Positions 2,746 to 57,228 of a stretch of 64,000 bases of DNA are shown in pieces. Numbering within the stretch: the stretch's first letter is position 1; each line of letters starts with the position of its first letter. The stretch covers positions 13,028,862 through 13,092,861 of the forward strand of contig NC_057918.1 in assembly GCF_018873765.1 (NCBI RefSeq), written 5' to 3'. The notes under the pieces were generated by a model. It was not told the DNA's origin. It saw nothing but the letters and a program-made list of their open reading frames with translations, and did not search any database. Source of the stretch: Telopea speciosissima. Lineage: Eukaryota > Streptophyta > Magnoliopsida > Proteales > Proteaceae. Both the position numbers and the translations under genes were made by a program.

Positions 2746-5700
2746 ATGGAGCAGGAGAAGCAAATGAAGCAGCAGAGCAGCTCCTCCAACGATATTAGCC
2801 TTAACAAACCCCTCCGTTGCATCGTCAAACTGGGTCTGCACTCTCTCTCTTCATCCCCTTGTAATTTATGCTTGGGCGGTACCTTGTTAAGCTGTCTCTG
2901 ATCTAAGATCGGAAATGAGAAAAAGAGAGCTTAAAGTTTGTTTTTGTTAATTTTATAGTAGTTATTAATACATTTAGTTATTGTGACCTAGGTGGTGCTG
3001 CAATTACTTGTAAGAATGAGTTAGAGAAGATAAACGACGAAAATCTGAAAATAGCTTCTTCACACCTGAGACAAGCAATGAACTCGTCTTCTTCTTCAAA
3101 CAAAGTTATTGCGATGGATTGGAGCAAGCGATCAGGGGTTTCAGAGATTTCTGCATCTTTGGATGATTTTGGGGATTTTCCATTGTTGGATTCGAGCAAC
3201 TCTATCGTCGTTCATGGAGCAGGTTAAACTCAGTTATTGCTCCTTGTGTGCTGCTATAGTCTAGAAGTTTTATTACATACATGGCCACATGGGATTGGAT
3301 TTTATTTGAGTTGGATTAGTCATAACTGGGATAAGTGATGGTGAATCGATGATTATAGTGTAGCTCCAGTTTGTTTCTTAGCAAGAATCTTGGCAGCATG
3401 AAATTGACCATTGAAGTTCAGAGATTTTACAGTTGAGTTGTCGTTTTTATTTTGTGTTGGTTAACGTTCATTGTTGTGGGATGTAGGTTCTTTTGGTCAT
3501 TTTCAGGCAAGCAGGTCTGGAGTCCACAAGGGAGGATTGCACTTGCCTCTTGTCAGGGCTGGTTTTGTGGCTACCCGAATTTCTGTAAGACATTGATATA
3601 GCCAATTGTTAAATATTGCCTGTTTCGGAAACTTCCCATTTCTGAGGTTTTGAAGCTTCATGGTTGTCGAGTCTGGTATCCAGGCTTCTTAGTCTGATCA
3701 ACCATTTCATGCTTAATATCTGTAAAGTTGGAAAGAAAGTCTAGATGAAAGGGCATAATTACCAACATTAGGACATTGAACTGTTGCAGCCCTTTTAGGC
3801 TCCATAATATGCTATTGTTGTACTTGTTATGAAAAATATCTCATTCTATTAATTGAGTGTAATCACATATATGTACACAATGGGTAATGAAATAACTAAA
3901 TATAGTTATTACACGTGGCTATTCCTTATCACCCTCCCTCAAGCGTAACGGTGGTGAACCAACAGTGAGCTTGCCCTTAAGCCATGTAAAGCGTAGCCAA
4001 GATAGACTCTTAGTGAGTACATCAGCAAGCTGATCTGTGGTTGGTGGCAACCATATCGCGAACAAAATGAAAATCAATCTCAATGTGTTTCATCCGAGCA
4101 TGAAACACAGGGTTGGCGGTGAGATAGGTTGCCCCAATATTATGACAGTGGATGATTGGTTGTTGAGGAAGGAAGACGCCTAATTCCCGAAGTAAAGAAC
4201 AAATCCAAACAAGCTCTGTAGCGGCGGCAGCAATGGCACGATACTCAGCCTCAGTGGAGGATCTCGACACTGTCTTTTGCTTTTTAGAAGACCAGGAGAT
4301 AAGATTGGTTCCAAGATATATAGCATAACCGGTGGTAGATTTGCGATCATCAGGGCACCCAGCCCAATCTGCATCTGCATAGGCTTGAAGTAACATAGAA
4401 GGAGATCCTTGAAGGAATAACTCCTCAGTCAACGTGTGCTTAAGGTAATGCAGCACTCTTTTAACGGCAGACCAATGCAAGTCAGTTGGGCAGTGCATAA
4501 ATTGCGCCAATTTGTTAATGACAAAGCTGAGATCTGCACGGGTCATGAGGAGATACTGAAATGCGCCAACCACCCGATGGTACTCAGAACCATCAGCCAA
4601 CGCAGTGCCAGAGTGCAATGTGAGAGGAGATCCTGTGGCCATAGGAGTAGAAATGGGTTTGGCCTCAAGCATAGCTGTACTGCAAAGTAAATCTGTGATG
4701 TACTTGCGTTGGGAAAGATAACAGCCCATAGATGACCGAGAGACCTCTATACCCAAAAAGTAGTGTAGATCGCCTAGATCCTTAAGTGCAAACGTGGCTG
4801 ACAAGGTGCCAATAAGAGCCTGGATTTTGGATGAATCAGTGCCCGTAATAAGAAGATCATCCACGTAGACTAAGCCATATAAGATGGTAGAGCCAAGGCG
4901 ATAGATAAACAAGGACGTATTTGTCTTGGAAGCAACAAAGCCATAGGCAACAAGCCATTCTCGAAGACGGGTGTACCAGGCCCTAGGTGCTTGTTTGAGC
5001 CCATAAAGTGACCTATGTAGGTGACAAACATAATCCGGATGGGCTGGATCAACAAAGCCCGGAGGCTGTACCATATACACATCCTCCGTAAGAAAGCCAT
5101 TAAGAAAGGCATTATTAATATCCAATTGTCGTACAGGCCAATGTTGAGATACAGCTAGAGAGAGAACCAGCCGAACAGTGACCGGTTTCACAACCGGGCT
5201 AAATGTCTCATTATAGTCGAGGCCAGGCCGCTGATGGAAACCCTTGGCAACTAAGCGAACCTTATGGCGTTCAATTGACCCATCCGAGTGACGCTTGAGA
5301 CAAAAAACCCACTTGCAGCCCACAACATTTTGATGCTGGGCAGGAGGAACTAAAGTCCAAGTACCATTACGTAATAACGCGTCAAACTCATCATTCATTG
5401 CCTTACGCCACTCAGGGGAACGAGCAGCCTGTGAGTAGCATGTTGGCTCCTCAATGGCCAAAGCAGTTGCAGTTAGCGTGAACCTGTTTGGCGGTTTGAG
5501 AGAACCAGTTCTGGACCGTGTGGTCATGGGATGAATACGTGCAACTCGAGGCCCAGAAATAGTGCTAGGCGGTGGGCCTGCGACAGGCACAACGGGCCCG
5601 GTGTTGGATATAACCTCAACATGCTGTGGTCCTGGACATGATGGATCACTGGGTAATGGGCCTGAGCCAGGCAGAGGAGTCTGGCCGTGGGCCAAGACGT

Positions 5701-8700
5701 CAAGAGACGATGGGTCTGAGAGACCCAAGCGTGGTTCGCATGAACCGGCATGCACAGTATTGCCGTGAGATGTTGACGGCTGAGGACCATGAGCAGCAAC
5801 CGAACAAGGCAACAAAATTGGAGGAACAACATCACACCAGGAGTCCACTGTAGAGCCAAATGAATGCAACCACTGATTGGTGGGTTGGGATGGAAAAACA
5901 TCCTCTACAAACTCCACATGTCGACTGATGTATAACCGATTTGTAGCAGTGTCAAGGCACTTATAGCCTTTATGTTGAAGGCTGTAACCCAAAAAAATGC
6001 AAGGAACTGAGCGAGGTGCTAGTTTGTGAGGACTGTAGGGCCTTAACCATGGATAGCAAAGACAGCCAAATGCCTTTAAAAAATGATAATCTGGCTGAAT
6101 ACCAAATAGGCGATGATATGGACTGTCAAGCTGAAGAAGAGGAGTGGGAAGCCTATTTATAAGATAAATGGCTGTAAGAAATGCATATGACCAGTATGCC
6201 GTAGGGAGATTAGCATGAAACAAAAGAGCAAGACCCGCCTCAACCACATGGCGGTGCTTGCGCTCAGCGGCCCCATTTTGAGCTTGAGTATGAGGGCATG
6301 AGATGCGACGGGAGATGCCATGAGCACCTAAAAAAGAATCCAGTTTTTGGAATTCCCCTCCTCCATCAGTTTGTATGCATTTAATCTTGGTAGAGAAGTG
6401 ATTTTCAACAAGAAGTTTAAAGCGTTGAAAAATAGGCAGCACATCAGATTTTCTCACAATAGGAAACAACCAGCTATACTTGCTGTAATCATCAACGGAC
6501 AACACATAATACCGAAACATATCATGGGAAGTCACAGGGGCAGGGCCCCAAACATCACAGTGCAACAGTTCTAAGGCACGAGTACTAATAGTAGGAGAAG
6601 AACCAAGAGAAAGTCTATGGCTCTTAGAGCACTTACAGGCCTTACAAGAAGATAGTAATGAAGTAGTAACAGGCAAAGAAAATGAAGAAACAACATGTTT
6701 AACAGTCTTAGAAGAGGGATGTCCAAGTCTGGAGTGCCAGCCATCAAGTGAAGCACGAACAGCTGAGTTGGAAACAGAAGGCATGTTGATCGGAAGAGTG
6801 AGTTCATAAAGACCATTGTTACTCCGGCCTTGGTATAGAATCTGACCTGTCCTCTGATCCTTGATCAAAAAACAATCAGAAGAAAATTCAAAGAATGAAT
6901 GATTATCTTTGCAAAAACGTTGAATGGAAATCAAGTTCCGGTGAATATTAGGCACATATAGAACATTAGAGAGTAAAAAATCACAAGAAGCAGCAGCAAG
7001 ATGAACAGAACCAGAACTTTCAATTGACAAACCTTGGCCATTTCCTACTATAATTTGTTCTGGGCCACAGAAAGGTGCACTAAGAGCAAGATTGCTCACA
7101 TCTGCAGTGGGATGATTATTAGAGCCGGAATCTAATAACCATGTAGATGAACCACAAGAAGAAAAGCAAAGATGTGTACCAAGAAATGCATGATTATATC
7201 GTTGAGGGCAGAGTGAGGCAGAGTGACCTTCAGTTCCACAGATTTGGCAACAAGAATGAGTAGAAGAGTTTGGAAAGGCTGACTGACCAGAAGAGAAGTC
7301 CGATTTACCATTGGTGCGCAGACGAGTCTGATCAGAACTTCGAGAACCAAAGTCTTGATAACGATTCTGATCCTGATAACGATTCTGATCTTGATAACGA
7401 TTCTGATCTGAGCGAGCAGCAGATTGACCGTTGCCTCGCGAATTGAAGCGTTGACTGCCCCGAGAACGAGGAAAACGGGAGGCAACATAACGCTTGTTTC
7501 TCTGAAATAGGGCATTCTTGGCATCACTCTGGCCTGCCGTCGCCATATTTGCCGTGGAAACAGAGGAGAGCACCTCATCAGAAACTGACTGGAGAAAGCT
7601 TTCATGGCTGAGCAGCAGATCAGTGAGATCGACAAAGGAAACAGGCTCAGCACGTAAACGAATAGAGGTAGCGAAATCTCGGTAGTCCGATCCTAAACCA
7701 CGGAGAGTATTCAACACCAGATCTTCATCACTTACAGGATGATCAATAGCAGCGAGCGCATCAGCAACAGTGCGCAGCTTAAGAAGATAAGCTCCAACCG
7801 AATCAGAGCCTTTCTGCAACCGGAACAGGCGTTCTTTCAGATCAAGAACCCTGGTACGGGATGATGGAGCATAAACCCTAGCCAACGTCTCCCAGGCATC
7901 ACGAGACGTTGTAGATCCAACAACATGCGGCACAGCCGCTTCAGAGAGAGACAAAATGATCCAGCTCAAGATGAGCTGATCTTGGCGATCCCACAGGTTT
8001 GAGAGCAAGAATCCATCAGTAGATTCGCCCGCCGGACGAGGATAGCTGCCGTCGACGAAACCAAGAAGATCATATCCTTTCAGTAATGGCACCAACTGCG
8101 CTCGCCAAAGAATATAATTCGAAGAGGATAACTTCAAAGGCAGATGAGGCGAAGCATTAAGCGTAACCAGAGACGAAGCATCACAAGCAGAGTTCGCTGT
8201 GAACGGAAGAGAGGTCGCCATGAAACCCCAAATGAGAAGCAGAGAAGAACTATTCAAGAACAAGAAAGAAAAGAGAAAGAGGGACCCAGGAAAAGTGACT
8301 CGTCAGAGTCTAAAAGTAACCTGATACCATGTTATGAAAAGTATCTCATTCTATTAATTGAGTGTAATCACATATATATACACAATGGGTAACGAAATAA
8401 CTAAATACAGTTATTACACGTGGCTATTCCTTATCAGTACTCATCTAACTAATCTGGCCATTTGGCAGCTCATTGTGTTGTGGCCCTGAAAATAGCAAGC
8501 ACAATGGTTACGCTGATGGACTGGGTAGGTTCTTCTTGTAAAAGAGTATGTGGCACAACATGGCTACATTTTTGTGTTTATGGAAGATGGACTACAGGCT
8601 GTCCTATATAGCTCTACAGACGCCCAAACTTCTGAACTTTTGTTATTATTTTGTTCCATGTAGCCTAACATACTTTAGTTGCGAATGGGTTACTCTGGAT

Positions 8701-41099: not shown

Positions 41100-44000
41100 T
41101 TACTCACTTGGAAGGAAAAAATCAAACCTAACATCAACAGAGCCAGAACTTTCCCCTGTATCTTTGTACTCAATATTTGTTATTTTCCCATATTCATCCT
41201 CCTCTTGATATTCAGGTTTCACTCGGCGGACAGGCACCGTGACAGAATACACAGTCCCAAGATCAGGATCAGTTGAGACACTAAGCTGGACTTTATCCTG
41301 TGAATCTATCTCCACAAAATCAGATAAGGCACTCACGATGTTCTTCACAATCTTGTGCTTTGCTTCATCGCTAACTGCACATCTGTCAGAGAAGAGGATC
41401 ATCTTTAGCCGCTGTTTGGCAATATTTGCATTAGAGTTCCTTTTCGACACTGGTGATGGAAACAATATCTTCCATGCCAAGTTTAAACGCTCAAAGAAGC
41501 TCATGTGAATGGCATTCAGAAGGAAGCCCTCAGCTTCTTGGTTTAAGGTTTTGGCTGGGAGCTTAGTTTCTCCTCCAATCCCAGAAGGCCGGTTATAGTG
41601 GCACCGGATATTACGTCCTTCAAGTTCAATGTGTGGCCACTTAGGAGTAACTTCAGAAATACCAGATCCTCCAGTGAGGAAACCACTAAATCCTACCTGC
41701 AAGATGGCATAAAAAAATAAACAAACATATGATGAGCCCTATAGTAGTCAACCAAACCACCAACAACAAGAAGAAGAAAGACATCATAATGTTAATTCAT
41801 GATTTGAACCTCCACTCTTCCAAGGGGTTTCCAATTTCAGCTTCCTAACTTCCTAAGTTGCAAGGAAATGACATACATACACACCCACTCACAGAAGAGG
41901 GAAGGAAAAGGTTATCAAAGGACAAATATATACTTCTCAGAAGAACGAAAAAAAAAAAGAAGGAACCAAGATAACATTCCCCCACCTCTCCCCTTCCTTT
42001 ATTCTTCAACAAAACTGAATACTTTGAATTAAAGGATCATCTAACTCAACCCTTATGTCCTACAGAACCCAACTACTACCAATTAGTCTCCGACCACCAC
42101 AAAGGTCAAGGAACTAGACAGTTGAGAGTAAGTACCCACTTTGCATGCTTGAAGAATCTAGACTTCACTACTTTCGCCATAACTATTATGACTAGCAATA
42201 CCTCACCGATGACACTGAATGATACATGGTTTGTGTAGTTCTCAAATATTGAATGGTAAGATGTAAACACAGGCAACAATATTTTCATGGCCAAGTATGA
42301 TGCAATCTGAAAATCAAATTGTGGATCTCAGATGCAAACAGGTCCAATAATCAAATGTGTGATCAGATTTAAATAAAGGACACAAGCAACTGCGTTGTTA
42401 AGGGAAGAAATCAGATTGATGTAAGGGTAAGAAAAAGAGATGAGATCGATTTTCTTGGGAGGAAGAAGAGAGGGGAAGAAAAGAAATCAGGTTTGAGATA
42501 CCAATCACTGCTCAATAGCTCCAAACTCTTAAAAAAAAAAACTCATTCTTTACTCAAATCATCTCTAATTGATTGGGGGGGGGGGGTATTACATATATAA
42601 AGACCTTCTAAAACTCCTATCTAGCTATTAAGTATTCTAATCTGACTCAAACACTCAACTTAACTACTAGTTCTGTAATTCTGTGTACTAAATTTATTCC
42701 CACTTTATGGGCTTATAAATTAGGCCCATTACAATGAAACCCAAGAAAATAAAAGGCCCAACTTATACAACTACCCAAAGGTCAATTTCAACCCATTGGA
42801 CAGCCACCAGCACCTTATGAGCTTCCCAATCTTGCGCATAGGCCTCCATATGGGATTAAGACCTCGTTCCACACACATGAGACAGGCAGAAGGTATGGGA
42901 TGACCAGTTCATGGAAAGCGAATTCGATCCTATAGTTGTCTTCTTTGTTCAATAAATGCGCCGAGGAAAGTTATGCTAGTTCCCTGCTCCTTCTTTTCTT
43001 TAGAACATGGTCTGTAAGACGCCTCACAAGTAACTGGTTCATAACAGAGTCCAGAAAGGGATTTCCAGCCTTTATCTCTATTGAACAACACACCAGAGGC
43101 AACAGTTACTAGTTTAATGCAACTGCATCAATTCCTCCGTTGTTGAGAAAAACTCGCCCTCATTTGAGAGAATCAGCACTACTTGATCAGTATCGTTAAC
43201 CATTGGTTTTGATGGGGCGATAATACAGCGCATCTCATAATCTCCTGATGATCATTGGTAAACGATATTTCCCCGATTGGAATTCGATCTTGGGGTTTCA
43301 CATTTGCAATGGGATCATCAATCAATTCCTCAATTTCAATCTTGATCGGACCGTTTATCTCATTGTGATCGTCACTTTCGTAGTCCATCTTTTCTATCAC
43401 CTCTGATATGTCCTCTGAAACTTCTATCATGCTTGACATTTCATTACAGAAGCGGTCAGTATTATCAACAATCTTTCGACAGCCTGTCTTGAGATCAACT
43501 CCTGTTTGGAGATCATGAAGTCCCGCTTGAAGACTATCTTAGGGTACGGATTTCATCAAATATCAAATGGAATGAATCGTCAACCTCCATGATGTAGCCT
43601 CAGGTTCGGCTCAGATACCAATTGATGCAATTAGAAAATCCAGAATATGGATCTCAGCTGTAAGCAAGCCCAAAAATCAAATATGTGATCAGATCTAGAT
43701 AAAGGAAGCAACTGCGTTGTTAGGGGAAGAAATCAGATAGATTGAAGGTGAAGAAAAAGAGATGAGATCGATTCTCTTGGGAGGAAGAAGAGAGGAGAAC
43801 AGAATAAATCCGGTTAGATTTGGGGTACGAATTCCATATGCACTGCTCAATAGCACCAAAACTCTTATTTTTTACTCAAATCATCTCTAATTGATGAGGG
43901 TGGTATAACATATATAAAGACCACCTAAAATTCCTAATACTTCTAATCACTCTAACATACTCAATAAAATAAAGGGTAAATTACAGATCACCCCCTGGTT

Positions 44001-47000
44001 TTCAATCGACTGGTTTAGACCCCAAAATGCCAAATTAGTCCCTGACGTTAGTTTTATGCTGTTAAGTGATGATGTCACCCAGTTAAATAAATTTAAATCC
44101 CTAAACTACCCTTGACCAGTGTTGATTTACGATTTTACCCATGTAACTAAAAACCCCTAAAGTATATGTGAGGTCTTACTTTTTTTTAAAAAATTAAAAC
44201 AAGGAATCAGAGGGAATATTCCCTCTCCTTCTTCCCCAAATCGCTAAACCAAGAATGGAGTAAACCCATTTAGGGTTTTAACAACCACCACCACGGCCTC
44301 TTGCGGCGACCGAACCAGAGGCCGGCGGCCAAGCTCAAACACGGCGAATGACTGTCAAAGTCCGATGGCCATAACCCTGGCCTTAGATGCCGGTGAAACC
44401 AAAAAAAAAAAACAAAAAAAAACCCCCGATGATGTTGAAGTTCTCTCTGTTCCAAGAATGAACACCTCCGAGGCTTACTTGAACAGAACATTAGCCTTCT
44501 CCAAGAGATTTCGCAATCTCCTTCTCTATTGAAAGATTGCCCTCCCGATCTGTACAAGCGTCTTGTAGCTGCTTTGGATTCGAAAAAGTTCTTGAGCAAA
44601 CTTGAGTCACTCCACCAAGAATCATTGGATGTGGCTAGCAATAATTTTCCTTTCAAAGAAGTCACAGGTACTGATATGCAAACAGTGGAAATTCTGGTTG
44701 GTCTTGATTGTGAAGAACCCAGTTGGTGGGTGTGGGTCTCAGATGAAAAGATTAGTGAAGAGTGGAGTGGATTAGATAATAAAAATGACGTGATTGTTGG
44801 TGAGGAACATGTGGTGAAGGTAGTTTTTTTTTATTACCTGCGGGGGCTCTGGTTTTAGGTCTAATTTCAGATCTTCTTCTTCTTTAATTACTTCTGATCC
44901 TCTCAATAGATCAGAAATCTGTTTTGGTGCTTTGCTTACCCTCTCTCAAGGGGTTCTTTGACTGCAATTACAGACCTATCCAACCTCAGATTTTTGGTAA
45001 TTTGAATCTGAAGGTAATTGAATGTTCTTCCACTGCTGATTTTGTGTTGTCACTCCTGCAGTGTTTCTACTTATTTTTTATTTCTGTTCTCTGAATCTTA
45101 CATCAAGACTGCTTCTATTACTCTGGCTATTTTGATTGTTTCGACATGATGGCTGATCCTAAGCTTCTAGTTGATTCAGTCCCTTTTCTCTCTCTTTTTT
45201 CTGTTTTGGTTACTTTCCCATTTGGCTGTGGCGGTGGTAAGGGTGTCAAAATGTAACCGGAACCGAATACCGAATCCAAAACCAAGCCGAATTAACCGAA
45301 CCAAATCGAACCAAATTAATTCGGTTCAGTTTCGGATCAAGCAAGTAAGGTTTTAATTTGGATCGGATCGGATCGGATATGGTTTCGATGTAAGAACCGT
45401 CGGTTCTAACCGAAACCGAACCAAATGACCGAATAACTTAAGGGTAGACTTCAAATTAACAAAATAAGGACATAAGTACAAATAAAAGCAAGAAGGGAAG
45501 GGTATACTTGAAAGAATGAAGCTATGGTGACAGAAAACACTGTCACCACTTTTCTTCAACCTCATGATAGAAGAAGAACATCGAGCCAGCGGTAACCCAT
45601 CTCCATCCCTATTGAGATGAATCATTCAAAAGAAGTCCAATCAACCTGAGATTTTAGAAGGAGTTTTCAAACTTACAGATCTCTGAAGAGTGCCCAACCA
45701 CTAGTTGAAAATTGAAATAGTTTCCATATGTTGACCTTTTCCAGAGAGAAAGAGAGAGAGGACTTTACTTGAAATGAAAGAATGAAGTTTTACAGAAAAA
45801 TTAGTTCAATTCGGATGAACCCATAGAAAGCTTAACGCATATGAAAACTGAAGAAGTCTTATAAATGAATCAAAAGCAGGAAGACTTACCAGTAACCCAT
45901 TTCAAAAGGAAGCACTTCCCACCAGTAGAAACGACATCATAGGCACCCTGAACATAATAACCGAATTGGAACCGTAACCGAACCGAACCGAACCGAGCAG
46001 GTTCGGATTTGGATCGAATTCCATAACTGACTTGGTTCTCGGTTCGGTTTTGGATCATACTCTCACTTCATGGAACCAAACCGAAACCGAACCAAATGAC
46101 TGAAATCGAGCCGATTGACACCCTTAGGCGGTGGCAACAGGAAGAAGAAGAAGAGCAGCAGAAGCAGAGGGTACCTAAAGTGCATTTTCTAAAAACATTG
46201 GGTATCTCAATTGTCATTGTTTATCTTATTATGGTTGAGGTTAAAATTGTCATTTCACTTTTGGGTTTGATTTAAGTTAACACCATTACTTTAGAGGGGG
46301 ACGGTTGAGTATTTTCAAAAACCAGGGGGTGATTTGAGTTTCGTTTGAAAACCAGGGGGTGACATGTAATTTACCCTAAAATAAATAAACTCAAAACATA
46401 ACTTTATCTATCTATTAAGTATCCTAATCTAACTCAAACACTCAACTTAACTACTAATACCGTGTACTAACTTTATTCCCACTTTATGGGCTTATCAATT
46501 AGGCCCATTACAATGAAACCCAAGAAATTTAAAGGCCCAACTGATAATTGATGTAGATCAAAGCATGAAGAAGAAAAGGACCAAAAGAGAATTCAGGAAG
46601 AATACTGTTCACGCATTTACAGTTCACATAGACCTGGTGTGGGCCCCATTGAAGACAGAAAGAGAAGGAGGATTTATTTGCCAGTTTAGTTTACTTGTTA
46701 TTTACTAAGTTTCTATTTTTGTGACCATTGCTAAGTTGGAGTTTCTATTCTGTACTTGTAAGTTAGATTTTAGTTAGTTTCTATTTCTGTTTTGAAGAAA
46801 TTTTAGGCTAGATTTTAATAGATAGCTGAGAATATGTTTCCTCTTTATTACTACTTTCTAATTTGTAAAGTTTCTAGAAGAGAGATCTTAGGATAGGAGT
46901 AGTTTATATTTTTAGTTGCTTTACTATTTAATAAAGAGAAGAGGCTGGACAAAGGCCAATATTTGAGTAATGAAAAAAAGAAAAAGAAAAAACGAAGCCT

Positions 47001-49005
47001 TGCTTTGAGCAATTCAGCTTTGGTGAGAAGCCAATGGTGAGATACCAAGGTCTGTGAGACAAACAAAGGCCATAGGTGAGAGGCTTTGGACATATCCCTT
47101 CCCTTTCTTTTTACCTTCTTCTTCTTTCTAGCGATTCTACCAGTTACTAATTTTGTTGCTGCTGCTGAAATCTTCAAGCACAAGGAACTTCACATCCATC
47201 CATCAACTTGAGCCAATATTTTGACAGCCTGTTATCCTATATAGACTATAGAATCTCCCTTCGATGGTGATCTGAGGGAATCAATTGGCTGGATTGGGCT
47301 ATAACTGTGAGTTGCTATTCTGGACTTTACCTTCCAATTCTGAGATCTATAGATATCACAGCATCCAGCCATCAGTTTTGGCTAAGATTCTGAAGTGTTG
47401 ACCCTTACCAAGCTTGCTACCTTCGATGGTGTTGGTTTCCCCATCCAAGTAGTTTACTTACTAATTCTGGATATCTTTTTTTTTTCTGAGTTTCAAAATA
47501 TATTCTGTTCTGCCGACAGCAGTGCTTTCTCATGCTGTTGGTCCTCTGTGGTCAAGTCTGTCAGTGACTGAATCCTTGTCTCAGACATGTGTTTACATCA
47601 GTACTAAAAGTCCTACTCCAGTACCTTAACATAATACCGTTACCTATTTACTTTTGAAGGAATTGGGTGTCAAAACCTACTGTTGTCAGTGCCTATGATC
47701 CTACTATAGGTTAGGAGTTAGGACTTCGTTGACCTAGCCCTACATTAATAATATAATTACCCAAAGATCAATTTCAGCCCATTGAACTGTCACCAGCACC
47801 TTATGAGCCTTCCAAGCTCGCGCATATGCGCCCATACGAAATTAATGTCGAATGTAACTGCATCAAAGTACCTTTGACGTTGCTGTATAAGAGATATGCA
47901 ACCAGAACGGACAGAAGTGCCAAAGAATGAGATTAAGAAATCATATTTAGTTAAGGATGCTGAATCATGATATCTGAAAGTAGAGGGTTGATTACTCAGA
48001 GGTAAATAGGACATAATGCCACACAGCAAATAAAATTTCTGGCAACATCTAGTATCAATTCTATTCTCCTATTAAGAAGGATTATGACAAATTCAAAATA
48101 GTAGCAAATGAACCCTTATGGGGCCTCAGATGTTTTCCTTTCCTGAATTCCAAGTCTTCTTCTTTTCCTATTCTTGAGATGGAACTGATGGTATTCTTTC
48201 TTGAACACCATGTCTACAGAGGAAGAGGCCTCAGTGCATTAGTTTCAAGCACATAAGAAGTATGAACTGAGATATGGATAATCAAATAAGGAGAACGTCA
48301 ACCCGTCAACATTTAAAGAAAAATAACAAGTAAAATATGTATGCTAATCAAATTTTGATATACATTTATCCAGAACAAATGTTTTGGGCTAACAACAATT
48401 CATAAACTACATGTGTTCAAGCAGAAAACCTCGATATCAAAAGTCAAAAATTCCCCAAGGAGTAGAGATCCAAAATAAGCTACCATTACATTAAAATACG
48501 CTACTGGCCAAATTATAGGTTAATACCACATCAAAAAACGGCCTGGGAAATTGATATTCAACAGGTCAGCTTCCCTTCAGTCTCTACTCCTAAGTGTATA
48601 GCACTGATTCGGATCAATTGAAGAATATAGACAGAAGTATAATCTCAAAAAGAAAATTAAGGGAAGCATTTGGTCTGGTCAAGGAATTTCTCATCTTCGA
48701 ATTGAAGAACTACCCATAAACTAGAAGCACTGATATGGGCAAACCAAAGATCAGTTCCAACAAAATCCAGAAGGAAATTGGTAATTTCTCTTCCTCAGAC
48801 AGTCAGACCATGAGTACGTTTTCCCCTGTCGAACCTCTGAGTCATTGGTGGAGAATAATATGAAATGCATTTCAATTTTGGGTTTGGAATCAGATACTTA
48901 ATGGGAGGAAAAACTTACCTTGGAAGGGGCAACAGAACGTCGAAGTGGGTTAGCAGGGTAAGAAGCTAAGGTCATGTTGAACCTTAAATCTCCAGAAATC
49001 GCCAT
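41100..49005 (-). CDS. MINE1: Plastid division factor MinE (ARC12), 2 exons
   Basis: Topological specificity factor that works with MinD in the chloroplast stroma to place the FtsZ ring at mid-plastid. Exon 1 is 48919-49005 (29 codons, MAISGDLRFNMTLASYP...APSK), exon 2 41100-41696, phase 0 at GT-AG, 227 aa. The first ~80 residues have the character of a transit peptide. The MinE domain runs from about 86 to 190: MinD-binding segment FFERLNLAWKILFP, then AKQRLKMILFSDRC, the dimer core NIVSALSDFVEID...VQLSVSTDPDLGTVYSVTVPVRR. A plant-specific tail, KPEYQEEDEYGKITNIEYKD...VDVRFDFFLPSE, follows. The only intron is 7.2 kb and is mostly filled by nested transposons in 42298-47865. The coding sequence itself is intact. 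Exon 1 was chosen by the canonical donor, the in-frame ATG and resemblance to plant MinE N-termini. Confidence 0.95.
42298..43131 (-). repeat. 3' LTR of the host element (834 bp)
   Basis: Shares ordered blocks with 43623-43973, 46377-46548 and 47745-47865: CAACTGCGTTGTTA, GAGATGAGATCGATT, TACTCAAATCATCTCTAATTG, CCCACTTTATGGGCTTAT, CACCAGCACCTTATGAGC. About 250 bp near its right end (42867-43115) are absent from the other LTR, so that copy has a deletion or this one an insertion. A 12-13-base G-tract lies near 42576. Confidence 0.8.
44430..44870 (+). pseudogene. Apparent captured gene fragment in the Mutator element
   Basis: An uninterrupted plus-strand frame contains LLEQNISLLQEISQSPSLL, KDCPPDLYKRLVAALDSKKF, LESLHQESLDVASNNFPFKE and VEILVGLDCEEPSWWVWVSD. 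It then stops being protein-like after GEEHVVKV, at a GTAG-like junction (44820). Composition and helix-like spacing look like an ordinary plant nuclear protein, not a transposase. I do not recognise the family. Position inside Mutator ends suggests a Pack-MULE capture of one or two exons. It has no credible start or stop of its own beyond an internal ATG at 44529. Confidence 0.55.
45238..46126. mobile_element. Non-autonomous hAT-type element nested in the Mutator element
   Basis: Ends TAAGGGTGTCAA and TTGACACCCTTA are perfect inverted repeats, with an 8-bp duplication GGCGGTGG at 45230-45237 and 46127-46134. It has dense subterminal AACCGAACC-type repeats on both sides, and GGATCGGATC near 45360. 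It is 889 bp with no transposase. Same family as 16414-17090. Confidence 0.88.
46549..47744. mobile_element. Solo-LTR-like insertion (1196 bp)
   Basis: Interrupts the 5' LTR of the host element between its ...AAAGGCCCAACT and ACCCAAAG blocks. It begins TGATGTAG and ends CCTACA; the flanks ATAAT and TTAAT look like a 5-bp duplication with one change. It has no coding frame above 110 codons and no second LTR. A solo LTR of a larger retroelement is the best fit, but a different origin is possible. Confidence 0.6.
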
Positions 49006-51233: not shown

Positions 51234-53097
51234 CTATATATCAGAGAATATGAAGAACGAACTGGTCCAGGCCACCACAATAGTGACAAGAACCCAGCAA
51301 AGGGATCTTGAGGGCGGCGAGGCATTATTAGTCGGAGCAAGAGCTGGTACCGGCGGATTTTCTTCAACAAGAACGGAAAGTTTCATGCCGTTCCAACAAT
51401 ACCCACCACCGGTGATGAAATAATAAGGCCTAGACTCGTTGAGTAGAACCACGTCCCTCCCTGCTCCACCCGTAAAATTTCCGATTAGGTGATCCGTTGA
51501 GCAACGCTCGTAACCAGTCTTGTTCACCTCCAGAACGCTGTAATACCTCTTATCATATACGAAGTCTGATGAAACAACAACAACAAAGGCAAAGAGAAAT
51601 CAATATTATCAAATATCAAATAGCTACACTTATAAGGAAATTTATCCTCTCTAGTGCAGTGTTGGAGTGCACCGAGACACAGCAAGGTGAGGAATGACCG
51701 CCTTACCCCTGCCCGAGCTCCTTGTCAAAGTGGGAGTAAGGTGGTCATTTTCCACCTTGCTCTGTCTCAGCAGTAGGGTTCTGCTGGATAGTTCGATAGT
51801 AGAGGATTTAAATTGAATGCACCACACTTAAGAATCCAAACGTCCACCCAACACTTGAAAGGATAAAAAAACATCACTTCCAATGTTTTTAGATTCTTTA
51901 ATTCACTTGTAGTCTCTTGTCTTCTATGTATGTGGTCTGGGCTCCTGAGTTGGGCCTGGAGTTGATGATATTTTGGAAAGATCATCGAGATTCATAGGGA
52001 GGGGAAAAAGAAAGAAAAAAATAAAAAATGAAAAATATTCCTTGACCAAGTACAGATTATTTTCTGGAAGAGATTAAGAAACAACAACTATTATTAAAGC
52101 ATGATATCATAATTTGAAAAATGAACGATCTAGTCAGAGTCAATCAATTCAAATTGGAAAAAGCCAATCCCAATCTCAATTAATGTCTATTCCTAAAATC
52201 GAATTTTGGAATCAACAATGTTGATCTTCATTTTTTACCATTTTTTTTCTTCTTCTTTTAATTAGTAAAATTGTGGTAAATTAATGAAACTCACCTCTCT
52301 CTTGTAACTTTCTCATCACCTGACCCGTGTCAGTATAAACTTTAAATACATTGCCCGAAATGACCGTCACACCCCTAAAAGGCAGAAATCCTACCCCTAT
52401 GCTTGCGCGTCTCATACGACCAAGTAAGGGACACTCAGGGCGCTGCCAACCGTTGGGCTGTGCCACACACATTTCTAGGCGTGCAACGAGATGTGTGCGG
52501 CACAGCTCAACCGCTGGATGCCCCATGGCAGCACCCTAGGCGCACGCCTCCCTCTCTCTTGTCCCCACCCCCCTCAAAAAAAAAAATTTAATAAAAATCA
52601 ATGTGAAAATGTTTTGCTTCTTCCTCCAATTCCAATTCAATCCCCCAACAAATTTGAGTCGAAATCGATGGAAACCAATCCCGTGATTAATTCCGGAGTT
52701 TAAAATCGTGTTTGATAAGGAAAGCGATACGCAGTGAAATGGTGAAACACCTTGAATTCAAGTTTAATAAATGGCCGGACTTCAAGACCCCACCCCTATC
52801 TCTCTCTCTTTCTCTCTTGAAATTCGTTACTGTAAAAACAAGTAATTCGATCGTCTAAACCTATTCTTTGAGCCTGGACGTGTTTCTTCCGATTATTTTG
52901 ATTTGAAAGGGGGAGAATCGGCCGAATCAAGCCTATTTCGCGAACCATATACGATTCGATATTTCAATTCTCATAACGAGGTTGCAAAAATGGAAGTATA
53001 CATTGAGAAAATCAAGGATCAAATCCGACAAAAAAAAGATATATGTAAGAGATTTTAACAGCAAAAGATTGAGATCGAAGATGTAATTCCTTTCTTC

Positions 53098-53131
<34 letters not shown>

Positions 53132-53348
53132 TGTGTGTGTGTGTTACAGACTTACAGAGCCAGTAGCCGACGTAGAAATGTTGGTTTGCGGACCATTTCG
53201 TGTAATTAACATTCGGATTCCACATTTGCGCTCCTCCAACCATGATTCTCTGATCCCCATAAACCGAAACAGCGAAGGTCAGTGCCAAGAAGGTTATTAT
53301 GCACCACAACTCTACAATTCCTCCTGATCTTCTACTCCAACCCTCCAT
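51234..53348 (-). CDS. Early nodulin-like (non-copper phytocyanin) protein, copy 1
   Basis: Secreted, probably GPI-anchored phytocyanin-fold protein of the plasma membrane or wall; plant-specific, often linked to reproduction and wall organisation. Exons 53156-53348 and 51234-51565, phase 1, 174 aa. Order: signal peptide (about 1-31, ending FAVSVYG), plastocyanin-like domain (about 33-132, with KWSANQHFYVGYWL, FVYDKRYYSVLEVNKTGYERC, YYFITGGGYCWNGMKLSV), a short proline/alanine linker, and a hydrophobic C-terminal tail. Copper ligands expected as His, Cys, His are Tyr, Thr, Tyr here, so it should not bind type 1 copper. The start is the Met of MEGWSRR; the open frame extends further upstream but without signal-peptide character. 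The 1.6 kb intron contains two MITE-like repeats and a GT/GA microsatellite beside the donor. Confidence 0.9.
51655..51790. repeat. Hairpin MITE in early-nodulin-like intron
   Basis: The arms GAGACACAGCAAGGTG...GACCGCCTTACCCCTGC (51674-51713) and TGGGAGTAAGGTGGTC...CACCTTGCTCTGTCTC (51731-51769) pair closely. The core word is shared with the 22841-23004 hairpin. Confidence 0.65.
52430..52545. repeat. GC-rich foldback in early-nodulin-like intron
   Basis: TGGGCTGTGCCACACACAT (from 52456) pairs with ATGTGTGCGGCACAGCTCA (about 52491-52509), and outer words GCGCTGCCA and TGGCAGCAC also pair. It stands out as GC-rich in an AT-rich intron. Probably a MITE; no clear duplication. Confidence 0.55.
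53104..53144 (+). repeat. Compound GT/GA microsatellite beside a splice donor
   Basis: (TG)n(AG)n(TG)n across about 40 bp. In the gene's sense it is an AC/CT run that begins about 10 nt downstream of the exon 1 donor of the early-nodulin-like gene. Confidence 0.9.
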
Positions 53349-53995
53349 TTCGATCTGCAACTCTCTTATTACTCTCTCACCTCCACTACTCACCAACAGC
53401 ACAGTCGCTACTCTGAGATTCAAACCGCTCACGTTGCGGAATCATCCAACGATTCACAGAGTCGAACGGAGCGGACGATAAAGACGTCCATTTGCAAAGC
53501 CCCCATTATATATGACTGATGTATGGTATGGGCTCACCAACATCTGACACCTGTGGAAGGGCAAGAGCAACTTAGGAAAGCGTGTTTTAGTAAATTTATA
53601 GGATGAAAGCACCTACGCTTTTACCAAAATACCCTTACTGTACTCTCTTGGCTTGGGTCTTTTGGCCACTTTTTTTGTGGGTTGCGGAAGGGACATTTAG
53701 GCAAAACAATAAAATACTAAAATCATCCAAAGGGGTAAGAATGAGAAACTCTTTCTCCCGCTGTAGCGCGTAAATTGAATATTTTTGGTAAAAAAACCCT
53801 AAACTGAGGTTGGTATTGTGCGCATTACTGTACATATTAGCAGCAATAGCCAGACTGGCGCCAGTCGGGTTTGCTTTTTACTGTTGTGCCTGGACTCGTG
53901 GCTATGCACCGGATTAAGGAATACACCCCAAATATCCCGTGTCCCAACTCCCACGTGAGTTGGCATTTCTAATTTTCTATAGTAGTACGGATCTT

Positions 53996-55589: not shown

Positions 55590-55595
55590 ATTAAA

Positions 55596-55668
55596 TGGAG
55601 ATGCAGGGGATCGAACCCTGTACCTCTCGCATGCAAAGCGAGCGCTCTACCATTTGAGCTACATCCCC
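55596..55668 (-). tRNA. trnA-UGC: tRNA-Ala (UGC)
   Basis: The 73-nt sequence folds into a full cloverleaf. The acceptor GGGGATG pairs with CATCTCC; A box TAGCTCAAATGG; D arm; anticodon stem TCGCT/TGCGA region with loop TTTGCAT, anticodon TGC at 55633-55635; B box GGTTCGATCCC; discriminator A. No intron. CCA is not encoded, as expected for a nuclear gene. The gene sits between two early-nodulin-like paralogues. Confidence 0.95.
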
Positions 55669-55699
55669 ACATGTTAATTTAGGAGGATAGTTAGGAATT

Positions 55700-56543: not shown

Positions 56544-57228
56544 CTACCAGAAACGAAGGAATGAGTCCCAAAGGGCAGCAATGGCGAACGCAGCTGGTAA
56601 AACAATGTGGTGGTGGGCTCTGTATCTACTAAAGGATGAAGGAGCAGATCCGCTCTTTTCGTTCATCGTCGTCGGAGATGCTGTCGGAGGCGGCGGGGGG
56701 TTTTCGACAAGCACGGAGAGCTTCATTCCACCGAAGCAGAAACCTTTACCACTGATGAAGTAGTATTGCTTGGTCTCATTAAGGGGAGCCACATCCCTTC
56801 CATGTCCAGTGGTCCAGTTGTGGATTGGATCAGTTTCTATGCATTGATCATAGGCCGTCTTGTTTACTTCCAACACGCTCATCATGTTCCTATCATACAC
56901 GAAAACTGTAACAACAACAACACACAAACACACAAAAATTATTTCTACTTCAATTGAACACACGACACAGAACCTTGGGAAATCATCCGAGTCAACTAGG
57001 TAACTCAGTAAAGAATACAGAGTGAGAGATGATCTTACAGAGCCAATCGCCAACGTAGAAGTGTTTGTTTTCGGCCCAAACGGTGTAGTTGACATTGGTG
57101 GTCCATCCAAGGTCCTTTCCAACTATGTATCTGACGGAGGACACACCTGATATCATCAAAAACAGCAATGCCACTGTTACCGTCACCACCACCCTCGGCG
57201 ACGCAATGCCTTGTTTCCCCACCTCCAT
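56544..57228 (-). CDS. Early nodulin-like (non-copper phytocyanin) protein, copy 2
   Basis: Tandem paralogue of the gene at 51234-53348, same strand and same intron position and phase. Exons 57039-57228 and 56544-56905, 183 aa, 133-bp intron. Signal peptide (MEVGKQG...LLFLMISGVSS), phytocyanin domain with YIVGKDLGWTTNVNYTVWAE, NKHFYVGDWL, FVYDRNMMSVLEVNKTAYDQC and QYYFISGKGFCFGGMKLSV, a proline-rich linker (ENPPPPPTASP), a serine-rich stretch and a hydrophobic tail, as for GPI anchoring. Copper positions are Met, Ser and Phe, so copper binding is lost here too. A (GA)12 tract lies directly before the ATG in the 5' UTR. Confidence 0.92.

What the first reader, a model, noticed from the sequence alone, without database searches (positions are those of the whole stretch)
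41697..48918. Four-layer transposon nest fills the only MinE intron
Order of events can be read from duplications: LTR element (AAGTA), then a Mutator-type element (TAAAATAAA) and a solo-LTR-like insert in its 5' LTR, then a hAT-type element (GGCGGTGG) inside the Mutator element. Yet both MinE exons remain intact with canonical splice sites 7.2 kb apart.
Basis: seen in the sequence. Interest (0 to 1): 0.7.

Follow-up and report, generated by a model that had tools for sequence, protein, structure and literature searches.

The report
Nested transposons inside a MinE intron
A plant gene for chloroplast division carries a stack of at least five inserted DNA pieces, four of them identified transposable elements, inside an intron while its coding parts look intact; it is a well-preserved example of an ordinary process in plant genomes.

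Summary
The nest is real. MinE (minus strand, 227 aa) has two coding exons split by a 7,222-bp GT-AG intron. Inside lie a short non-autonomous LTR retrotransposon (42298-47865), a MULE-like element (43974-46376), a solo LTR (46549-47747) and a hAT (45238-46126), each with an exact target-site duplication. Host-genome relatives lacking the insert match the rebuilt empty sites of MULE, solo LTR and hAT, and a two-LTR relative shows the solo LTR is a true LTR.

Corrections: nesting is three TEs deep (LTR > MULE > hAT), with the solo LTR beside the MULE. An unclassified insert of about 250 bp in the other LTR was missed. About 1.65 kb of original intron remains; the nest is 77%. The hAT middle matches a locus elsewhere on the chromosome in two pieces, as in a Pack-hAT.

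Not shown: expression and splicing, the outermost empty site, MinE copy number. Long TE-rich introns are reported in magnoliids, Chloranthales and grapevine, so this is a new example of a known kind. One hook: a T-DNA in intron 1 of Arabidopsis AtMinE1 nearly abolishes its transcript, so how this intron is tolerated is testable.

The parts
48919..49005 (-). MinE coding exon 1 (29 codons)
   Evidence: ATG to donor AAG|GTAAGT
41100..41696 (-). MinE coding exon 2 with stop
   Evidence: joined exons give 227 aa without a stop; Pfam MinE E 4.1e-14
41697..48918 (-). MinE intron, 7,222 bp, GT-AG
42293..42297 (.). TSD AAGTA of the LTR element, left copy
42298..47865 (-). short non-autonomous LTR retrotransposon (with later inserts), same orientation as MinE
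   Evidence: LTR ends TGATGCA/TGCATCA and TSD AAGTA; primer-site-like TGGTATCTGAGCC 2 bp from the right LTR on the minus strand
42298..43130 (-). LTR A (3' LTR in element sense)
42860..43111 (.). extra insert of about 250 bp in LTR A, origin unknown, no duplication seen; ends approximate
43131..43622 (-). internal region of the LTR element, 492 bp; longest stop-to-stop frame 119 aa, no reverse transcriptase match
43623..47865 (-). LTR B (5' LTR in element sense), interrupted by the MULE and the solo LTR
43965..43973 (.). TSD TAAAATAAA of the MULE, left copy
43974..46376 (.). MULE-like element, 36-bp terminal inverted repeats (33 of 36 identical), interrupted by the hAT
44439..44855 (+). 139-aa stop-to-stop frame in the MULE; no Pfam match, no third-position excess; part of a segment shared with MULE copies that have other ends
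45230..45237 (.). TSD GGCGGTGG of the hAT, left copy
45238..46126 (.). non-autonomous hAT element, TIR TAAGGGTGTCAA
45435..45957 (.). middle of the hAT: two pieces matching G000 C3:23.317-23.322 Mb
46127..46134 (.). TSD GGCGGTGG of the hAT, right copy
46377..46385 (.). TSD TAAAATAAA of the MULE, right copy
46544..46548 (.). TSD ATAAT of the solo LTR, left copy
46549..47747 (.). solo LTR (TGATGTAG...CTACATTA)
47748..47752 (.). TSD ATAAT of the solo LTR, right copy
47866..47870 (.). TSD AAGTA of the LTR element, right copy

Best explanation
Successive, independent transposition into one tolerated intron. A short non-autonomous LTR retrotransposon inserted into a MinE intron of about 1.65 kb in sense orientation. 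A MULE and a second LTR element then inserted into its upstream LTR, and recombination between the LTRs of the second reduced it to a solo LTR. A hAT element that carries a copy of other genomic DNA then inserted into the MULE. An undetermined event added about 250 bp to the other LTR. Shown: the elements, their duplications, and the empty sites of the MULE, solo LTR and hAT. Inferred: recombination to a solo LTR, the DNA copying by the hAT, and that MinE is still transcribed through and spliced, perhaps with silent chromatin on the nest keeping its poly(A)-like signals unused (as IBM2/EDM2/AIPP1 do in Arabidopsis). The confidence given is for the insertion history; the splicing part is weaker and is what the first two rivals attack.
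For: Exact TSDs. Identical 8-bp TSDs at four of six other hAT loci examined (L015-L018), 7 of 8 letters at L019, only one end found at L020, and CCCAAACC on both sides of L022. hAT-empty MULE relatives L049 and L050 with one GGCGGTGG. MULE-empty and solo-empty LTR relatives. A two-LTR relative of the solo LTR with primer-site-like and polypurine-like stretches. LTR-LTR divergence K2P 0.128 over 556 aligned sites. Intact MinE frame and near-consensus splice sites.
Against: No RNA evidence. The empty site of the outermost element was not seen. MULE versus solo-LTR order is unresolved. The insert of about 250 bp has no visible duplication, so not every step is a simple transposition. At two other members of the solo-LTR family the flanking 5 bp agree in only 4 of 5 letters.
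Confidence: 0.93

Rival explanations
1. The gene is a silenced or broken MinE copy: the nest stops transcription and another MinE copy does the work.
For: A T-DNA in intron 1 of Arabidopsis AtMinE1 lowers its transcript about 2,000-fold (PMC4593956, passages). The LTR element is in sense orientation. Six of the seven AATAAA words of the intron on the MinE strand lie in the nest, though about four would be expected there from base composition alone (own arithmetic from the composition).
Against: The outer LTRs are about 12.8% diverged, so the insertion looks old, yet the 227-aa frame and both splice sites are intact. A T-DNA is not a natural TE.
Confidence: 0.08
2. MinE is transcribed from a start downstream of the nest (in exon 2 or from an LTR), so the intron is no longer used.
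For: Exon 2 alone holds a 200-aa frame with a TTG start. A sense LTR could supply a promoter (inference).
Against: Exon 1 keeps an in-frame ATG and the donor AAG|GTAAGT, not expected if unused for millions of years.
Confidence: 0.05
3. The extra stretch of about 250 bp in LTR A is original LTR sequence that LTR B lost, not an insertion.
For: No target-site duplication at its ends.
Against: In one search no match other than the window's own copy extends past the point where the stretch begins (40 of 1,095 candidates scored). Of seven loci read at that point, L053 and L054 go straight to the LTR end; L061 reaches the point and then runs into other sequence; the other four do not reach it.
Confidence: 0.07

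Closest known systems
TE-rich long introns of plants (Chloranthales, magnoliids, grapevine)
   Same: [quoted passage not shown] average introns about 1.66, 2.87 and 3.35 kb in Lauraceae, Magnoliaceae and Chloranthus (PMC8626473, section 8). TEs make up about 80% of expanded intron space in grapevine (PMC3058033, passages).
   Different: Only the particular stack and the host gene.
Short non-autonomous LTR retrotransposons (TRIM-like)
   Same: Paired LTRs, primer-site-like stretch, 492-bp internal region, no reverse transcriptase match in its longest frame.
   Different: LTRs of about 580-630 bp without later inserts (from the coordinates), longer than classical TRIM LTRs (recalled).
Pack-MULE
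   Same: MULE ends around a segment shared with copies that have different ends.
   Different: No donor gene found; no sign of coding constraint.
Pack-hAT / Pack-TYPE elements
   Same: Family-wide hAT ends around DNA that matches another locus. Pack-hATs are described in maize (PMC8903248, passages).
   Different: The donor-like locus holds the two pieces 4.9 kb apart and was not shown to be a gene.
Heterochromatic TE-containing introns under IBM2/EDM2/AIPP1
   Same: TE inside a gene; that pathway suppresses cryptic poly(A) sites in heterochromatic TEs (PMC10241880, passages).
   Different: No chromatin or RNA data here; membership not claimed.

Membership tests
LTR retrotransposon (outer element) | two similar direct LTRs with TG...CA ends | tested here: met
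   TGATGCA...TGCATCA; K2P 0.128 over 556 sites
LTR retrotransposon (outer element) | short target-site duplication | tested here: met
   AAGTA, exact
LTR retrotransposon (outer element) | tRNA primer site next to the 5' LTR | tested here: inconclusive
   minus-strand TGGTATCTGAGCC 2 bp from the LTR, read by eye; assignment to initiator Met tRNA is recalled, not computed
LTR retrotransposon, autonomous | reverse transcriptase and integrase | tested here: not met
   492-bp internal region; its longest frame (119 aa) gave no such match; shorter frames were not searched
TRIM | LTRs of about 100-250 bp, under 1 kb in all (recalled) | tested here: not met
   LTRs about 580-630 bp without later inserts (coordinates)
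MULE (Mutator-like) | 9-bp target-site duplication | tested here: met
   TAAAATAAA, exact
MULE (Mutator-like) | terminal inverted repeats | tested here: met
   36 bp, 33 identical
MULE (Mutator-like) | Mutator-type transposase in an autonomous partner | not tested
   no partner was sought
hAT | 8-bp target-site duplication and short TIR | tested here: met
   GGCGGTGG; identical pairs at L015-L018, 7 of 8 letters at L019, one end only at L020, identical pair at L022
hAT | hAT transposase in an autonomous partner | not tested
   no partner was sought
Solo LTR | family member with two such LTRs, primer site and polypurine tract | tested here: met
   L048 has two LTRs TGATGTAG...CTACATTA, TTTAGTATCAGAGCC after the first, GTGGGGGAGA before the second; its flanking 5 bp agree in 4 of 5
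Pack-hAT | captured host gene sequence between hAT ends, donor identified | tested here: inconclusive
   donor-like locus 93-94% identical; Pfam found nothing in the 10 frames searched of the 28 listed there
MinE | MinE domain | tested here: met
   PF03776, 52.7 bits, cut-off 25. NCBIfam's bacterial minE models match below their cut-offs

The most novel reading that the evidence does not exclude
The nest makes MinE expression depend on silent chromatin in the intron: loss of silencing would shift transcripts to premature poly(A) sites in the sense-oriented LTRs, so chloroplast division could be tuned epigenetically in this lineage.
Probability: 0.1. Interest if true: 0.55.

Novelty: new member of a known kind. 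Interest (0 to 1): 0.24.

Why it matters
It is a clean, roughly datable record of stepwise insertion in a gene for plastid division. A T-DNA in intron 1 of the Arabidopsis gene nearly silences it (PMC4593956, passages), so comparing the two could show what makes an intronic insert tolerable. As TE biology it is ordinary.

Tried and rejected
Considered and rejected: LTR B deletion instead of LTR A insertion. The 139-aa MULE frame as a live gene: 22-26 mismatches against each of five relatives, none with a third-position excess; no Pfam hit for it or for the longer 186-aa frame on the other strand; PDB best E 0.34, XRCC4, treated as chance. A weak Pfam T2SSF hit (E 0.1, below cut-off) for the 119-aa LTR-element frame, treated as chance. 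RNA genes in the nest: at Rfam's gathering scores the window has one match, a tRNA at 55596-55668.

Not answered: the genome search reported 'busy' for the MinE protein (19 tries), for the stretch 42860-43113 (10 tries: 80, 82, 84, 86, 90, 92, 97, 99, 103, 106) and for the right intron flank (5 tries: 76, 93, 96, 100, 105). MinE copy number, the origin of the insert and the outer empty site therefore stay open. Others were answered after repeats: LTR internal 4, 7, 13 then 19; MULE 21 then 31; solo LTR 22, 33 then 34; LTR A 24, 58, 60, 63, 67, 73 then 78. The hAT query was answered first time (23). Each of the five answered searches scored 40 candidates, so family sizes are lower bounds. A paper search for MinE, chloroplast division, intron and transposon insertion together held 0 papers.
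Full report
What is there. The window lies in a plant genome held as G000 (822,943,500 bases, 1,287 contigs), at C3:13028862-13092861. On the minus strand a MinE gene has a 29-codon first coding exon (48919-49005) and a second exon whose stop ends at 41100; joined they give 227 aa without a stop, with Pfam MinE at E 4.1e-14. The intron (41697-48918, 7,222 bp) starts AAG|GTAAGT and ends TTGCAG.

The four elements. Outer: an LTR retrotransposon, 42298-47865, TSD AAGTA, LTR ends TGATGCA/TGCATCA. A primer-site-like TGGTATCTGAGCC lies 2 bp from the right LTR on the minus strand (read), so it has the orientation of MinE. The internal region is 492 bp; its longest frame gave no reverse transcriptase match. 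That region gave 46 matches in the genome, the window's own and split pieces included (40 of 230 candidates scored). Second: MULE-like, 43974-46376, TSD TAAAATAAA, 36-bp TIRs with 33 identical positions. Third: a solo LTR, 46549-47747, TSD ATAAT. Fourth: a hAT, 45238-46126, TSD GGCGGTGG, TIR TAAGGGTGTCAA.

Evidence from the genome. (a) hAT site: MULE relatives L049 and L050 run through it with one GGCGGTGG; L049 aligns to the joined flanks at 91.5% over 1,483 columns, from position 43 of 1,507, and L050 at 86% over 299 columns. L051 also aligns through the joined flanks at 87%, but its local alignment began downstream of the duplication, so the single copy is not shown there. (b) MULE site: a 220-bp joined query was tried on the 18 LTR-family loci in hand other than the window's own. 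Nine of 18 span it to within 3 bp of both ends: L060, L062, L056, L059, L004, L003, L054 and L053 with 0-1 extra bases near the junction, and L061 with 7 (identities 65-82%, L053 the lowest). L057, L058 and L063 span the junction in part; L005 and L055 start 26 and 32 bp before it and run to the end; L002, L006, L007 and L008 gave only short matches of 25-40 bases. Extra bases were counted; bases missing from the relatives were not. (c) Solo-LTR site, 180-bp joined query, same 18 loci: L053, L054 and L061 span it to within 5 bp of both ends (84%, 82%, 68%; 0, 0 and 1 extra bases); L063, L057 and, weakly, L058 cross the junction in part. Eight (L003, L004, L005, L055, L056, L059, L060, L062) stop before it, and L002, L006, L007 and L008 gave only short matches. 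(d) The solo-LTR family has a two-LTR member (L048) with TTTAGTATCAGAGCC after the first LTR and GTGGGGGAGA before the second, and another copy, L046, with the same two ends 1,480 bp apart. The flanking 5 bp of these two agree in 4 of 5 letters. (e) hAT family: of six other loci examined, L015-L018 have identical 8-bp duplications, L019 agrees in 7 of 8 and L020 showed one end only; the close relative L022 has CCCAAACC on both sides.

LTR A carries about 250 extra bp (about 42860-43111). In the LTR A search no match other than the window's own copy extends past the point where it begins (40 of 1,095 candidates scored). Of seven loci read at that point, L053 and L054 go straight on to the LTR end, L061 reaches the point and runs into other sequence, and L055, L056, L057 and L059 align only to earlier positions. 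I read this as an insertion without visible duplication. LTR A also lacks some tens of bases around the MULE site that LTR B and L060 share. The hAT middle (query 198-473 and 489-720) matches C3:23322161-23322436 and C3:23317011-23317245 at 94% and 93%, while the common hAT ends match about 1-196 and 720-889. That fits copied DNA, but Pfam found nothing in the 10 frames searched of 28 at that locus. The MULE interior (301-1092 of the 1,265-bp query) is shared with copies that have other ends (L027-L029); mismatches by codon position against five relatives show no third-position excess.

Nesting and time. TE depth is three (LTR > MULE > hAT); the solo LTR is parallel to the MULE. LTR divergence is K2P 0.128 over 556 aligned sites: 4.9 My at 1.3e-8 and 9.1 My at 7e-9 substitutions per site per year (both rates recalled). 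The three aligned pieces differ widely (0.132, 0.068, 0.212), so the date is rough. Without the nest the intron is 596 + 5 + 1,048 = 1,649 bp (segment lengths).

How it probably works. Nothing here shows a function for the nest. MinE is most likely transcribed through and spliced, because the frame is intact and the splice sites are near consensus; this step is inferred. Six of the intron's seven AATAAA words on the MinE strand lie in the nest, about what base composition predicts (around four, own arithmetic), so a poly(A) hazard is possible but not indicated. In Arabidopsis the IBM2/EDM2/AIPP1 pathway suppresses cryptic poly(A) sites in heterochromatic TEs (PMC10241880, passages). Against easy tolerance, the atminE1 T-DNA in intron 1 lowers transcripts about 2,000-fold (PMC4593956, passages).

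Known or new. Long introns with LTRs as major contributor are reported for Chloranthus, long introns also for magnoliids (PMC8626473, section 8), and TE-filled introns for grapevine (PMC3058033, passages). Pack-hATs are described in maize (PMC8903248, passages). This is a new instance of a known kind.

Limits. MinE copy number, the outer empty site and the origin of the insert of about 250 bp could not be examined because the genome search stayed busy (see Tried and rejected).

Noticed in passing
window 3825-8436: Copia-type retrotransposon with very short LTRs (107-bp match, 96% identical), GTACT on both sides and an uninterrupted 1,413-aa frame on the minus strand; reverse transcriptase and gag Pfam matches above cut-off, integrase core below it. 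Described only.
   Followed up: partly
window 45435-45957; L021: The hAT middle matches two pieces of C3:23.317-23.322 Mb that lie 4.9 kb apart there but about 15 bp apart in the element: a possible Pack-hAT chimera.
   Followed up: partly
window 42860-43111: About 250 bp of unidentified sequence in LTR A, not seen in the other scored family copies, without a duplication.
   Followed up: partly
window 55595-55669 (minus): tRNA-Ala (TGC) gene.
   Followed up: no
window 53055-53432 and 56544-57122 (minus): Two plastocyanin-like frames, the second E 1.5e-10, the first weak (E 0.013, below cut-off); a 63-bp stretch of the two is 79% alike.
   Followed up: no
window 9553-62531, scattered: A dispersed short repeat in both orientations (about 9568, 11362, 16532, 36124, 40305, 59487, 62350), roughly 73-90% alike.
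   Followed up: no
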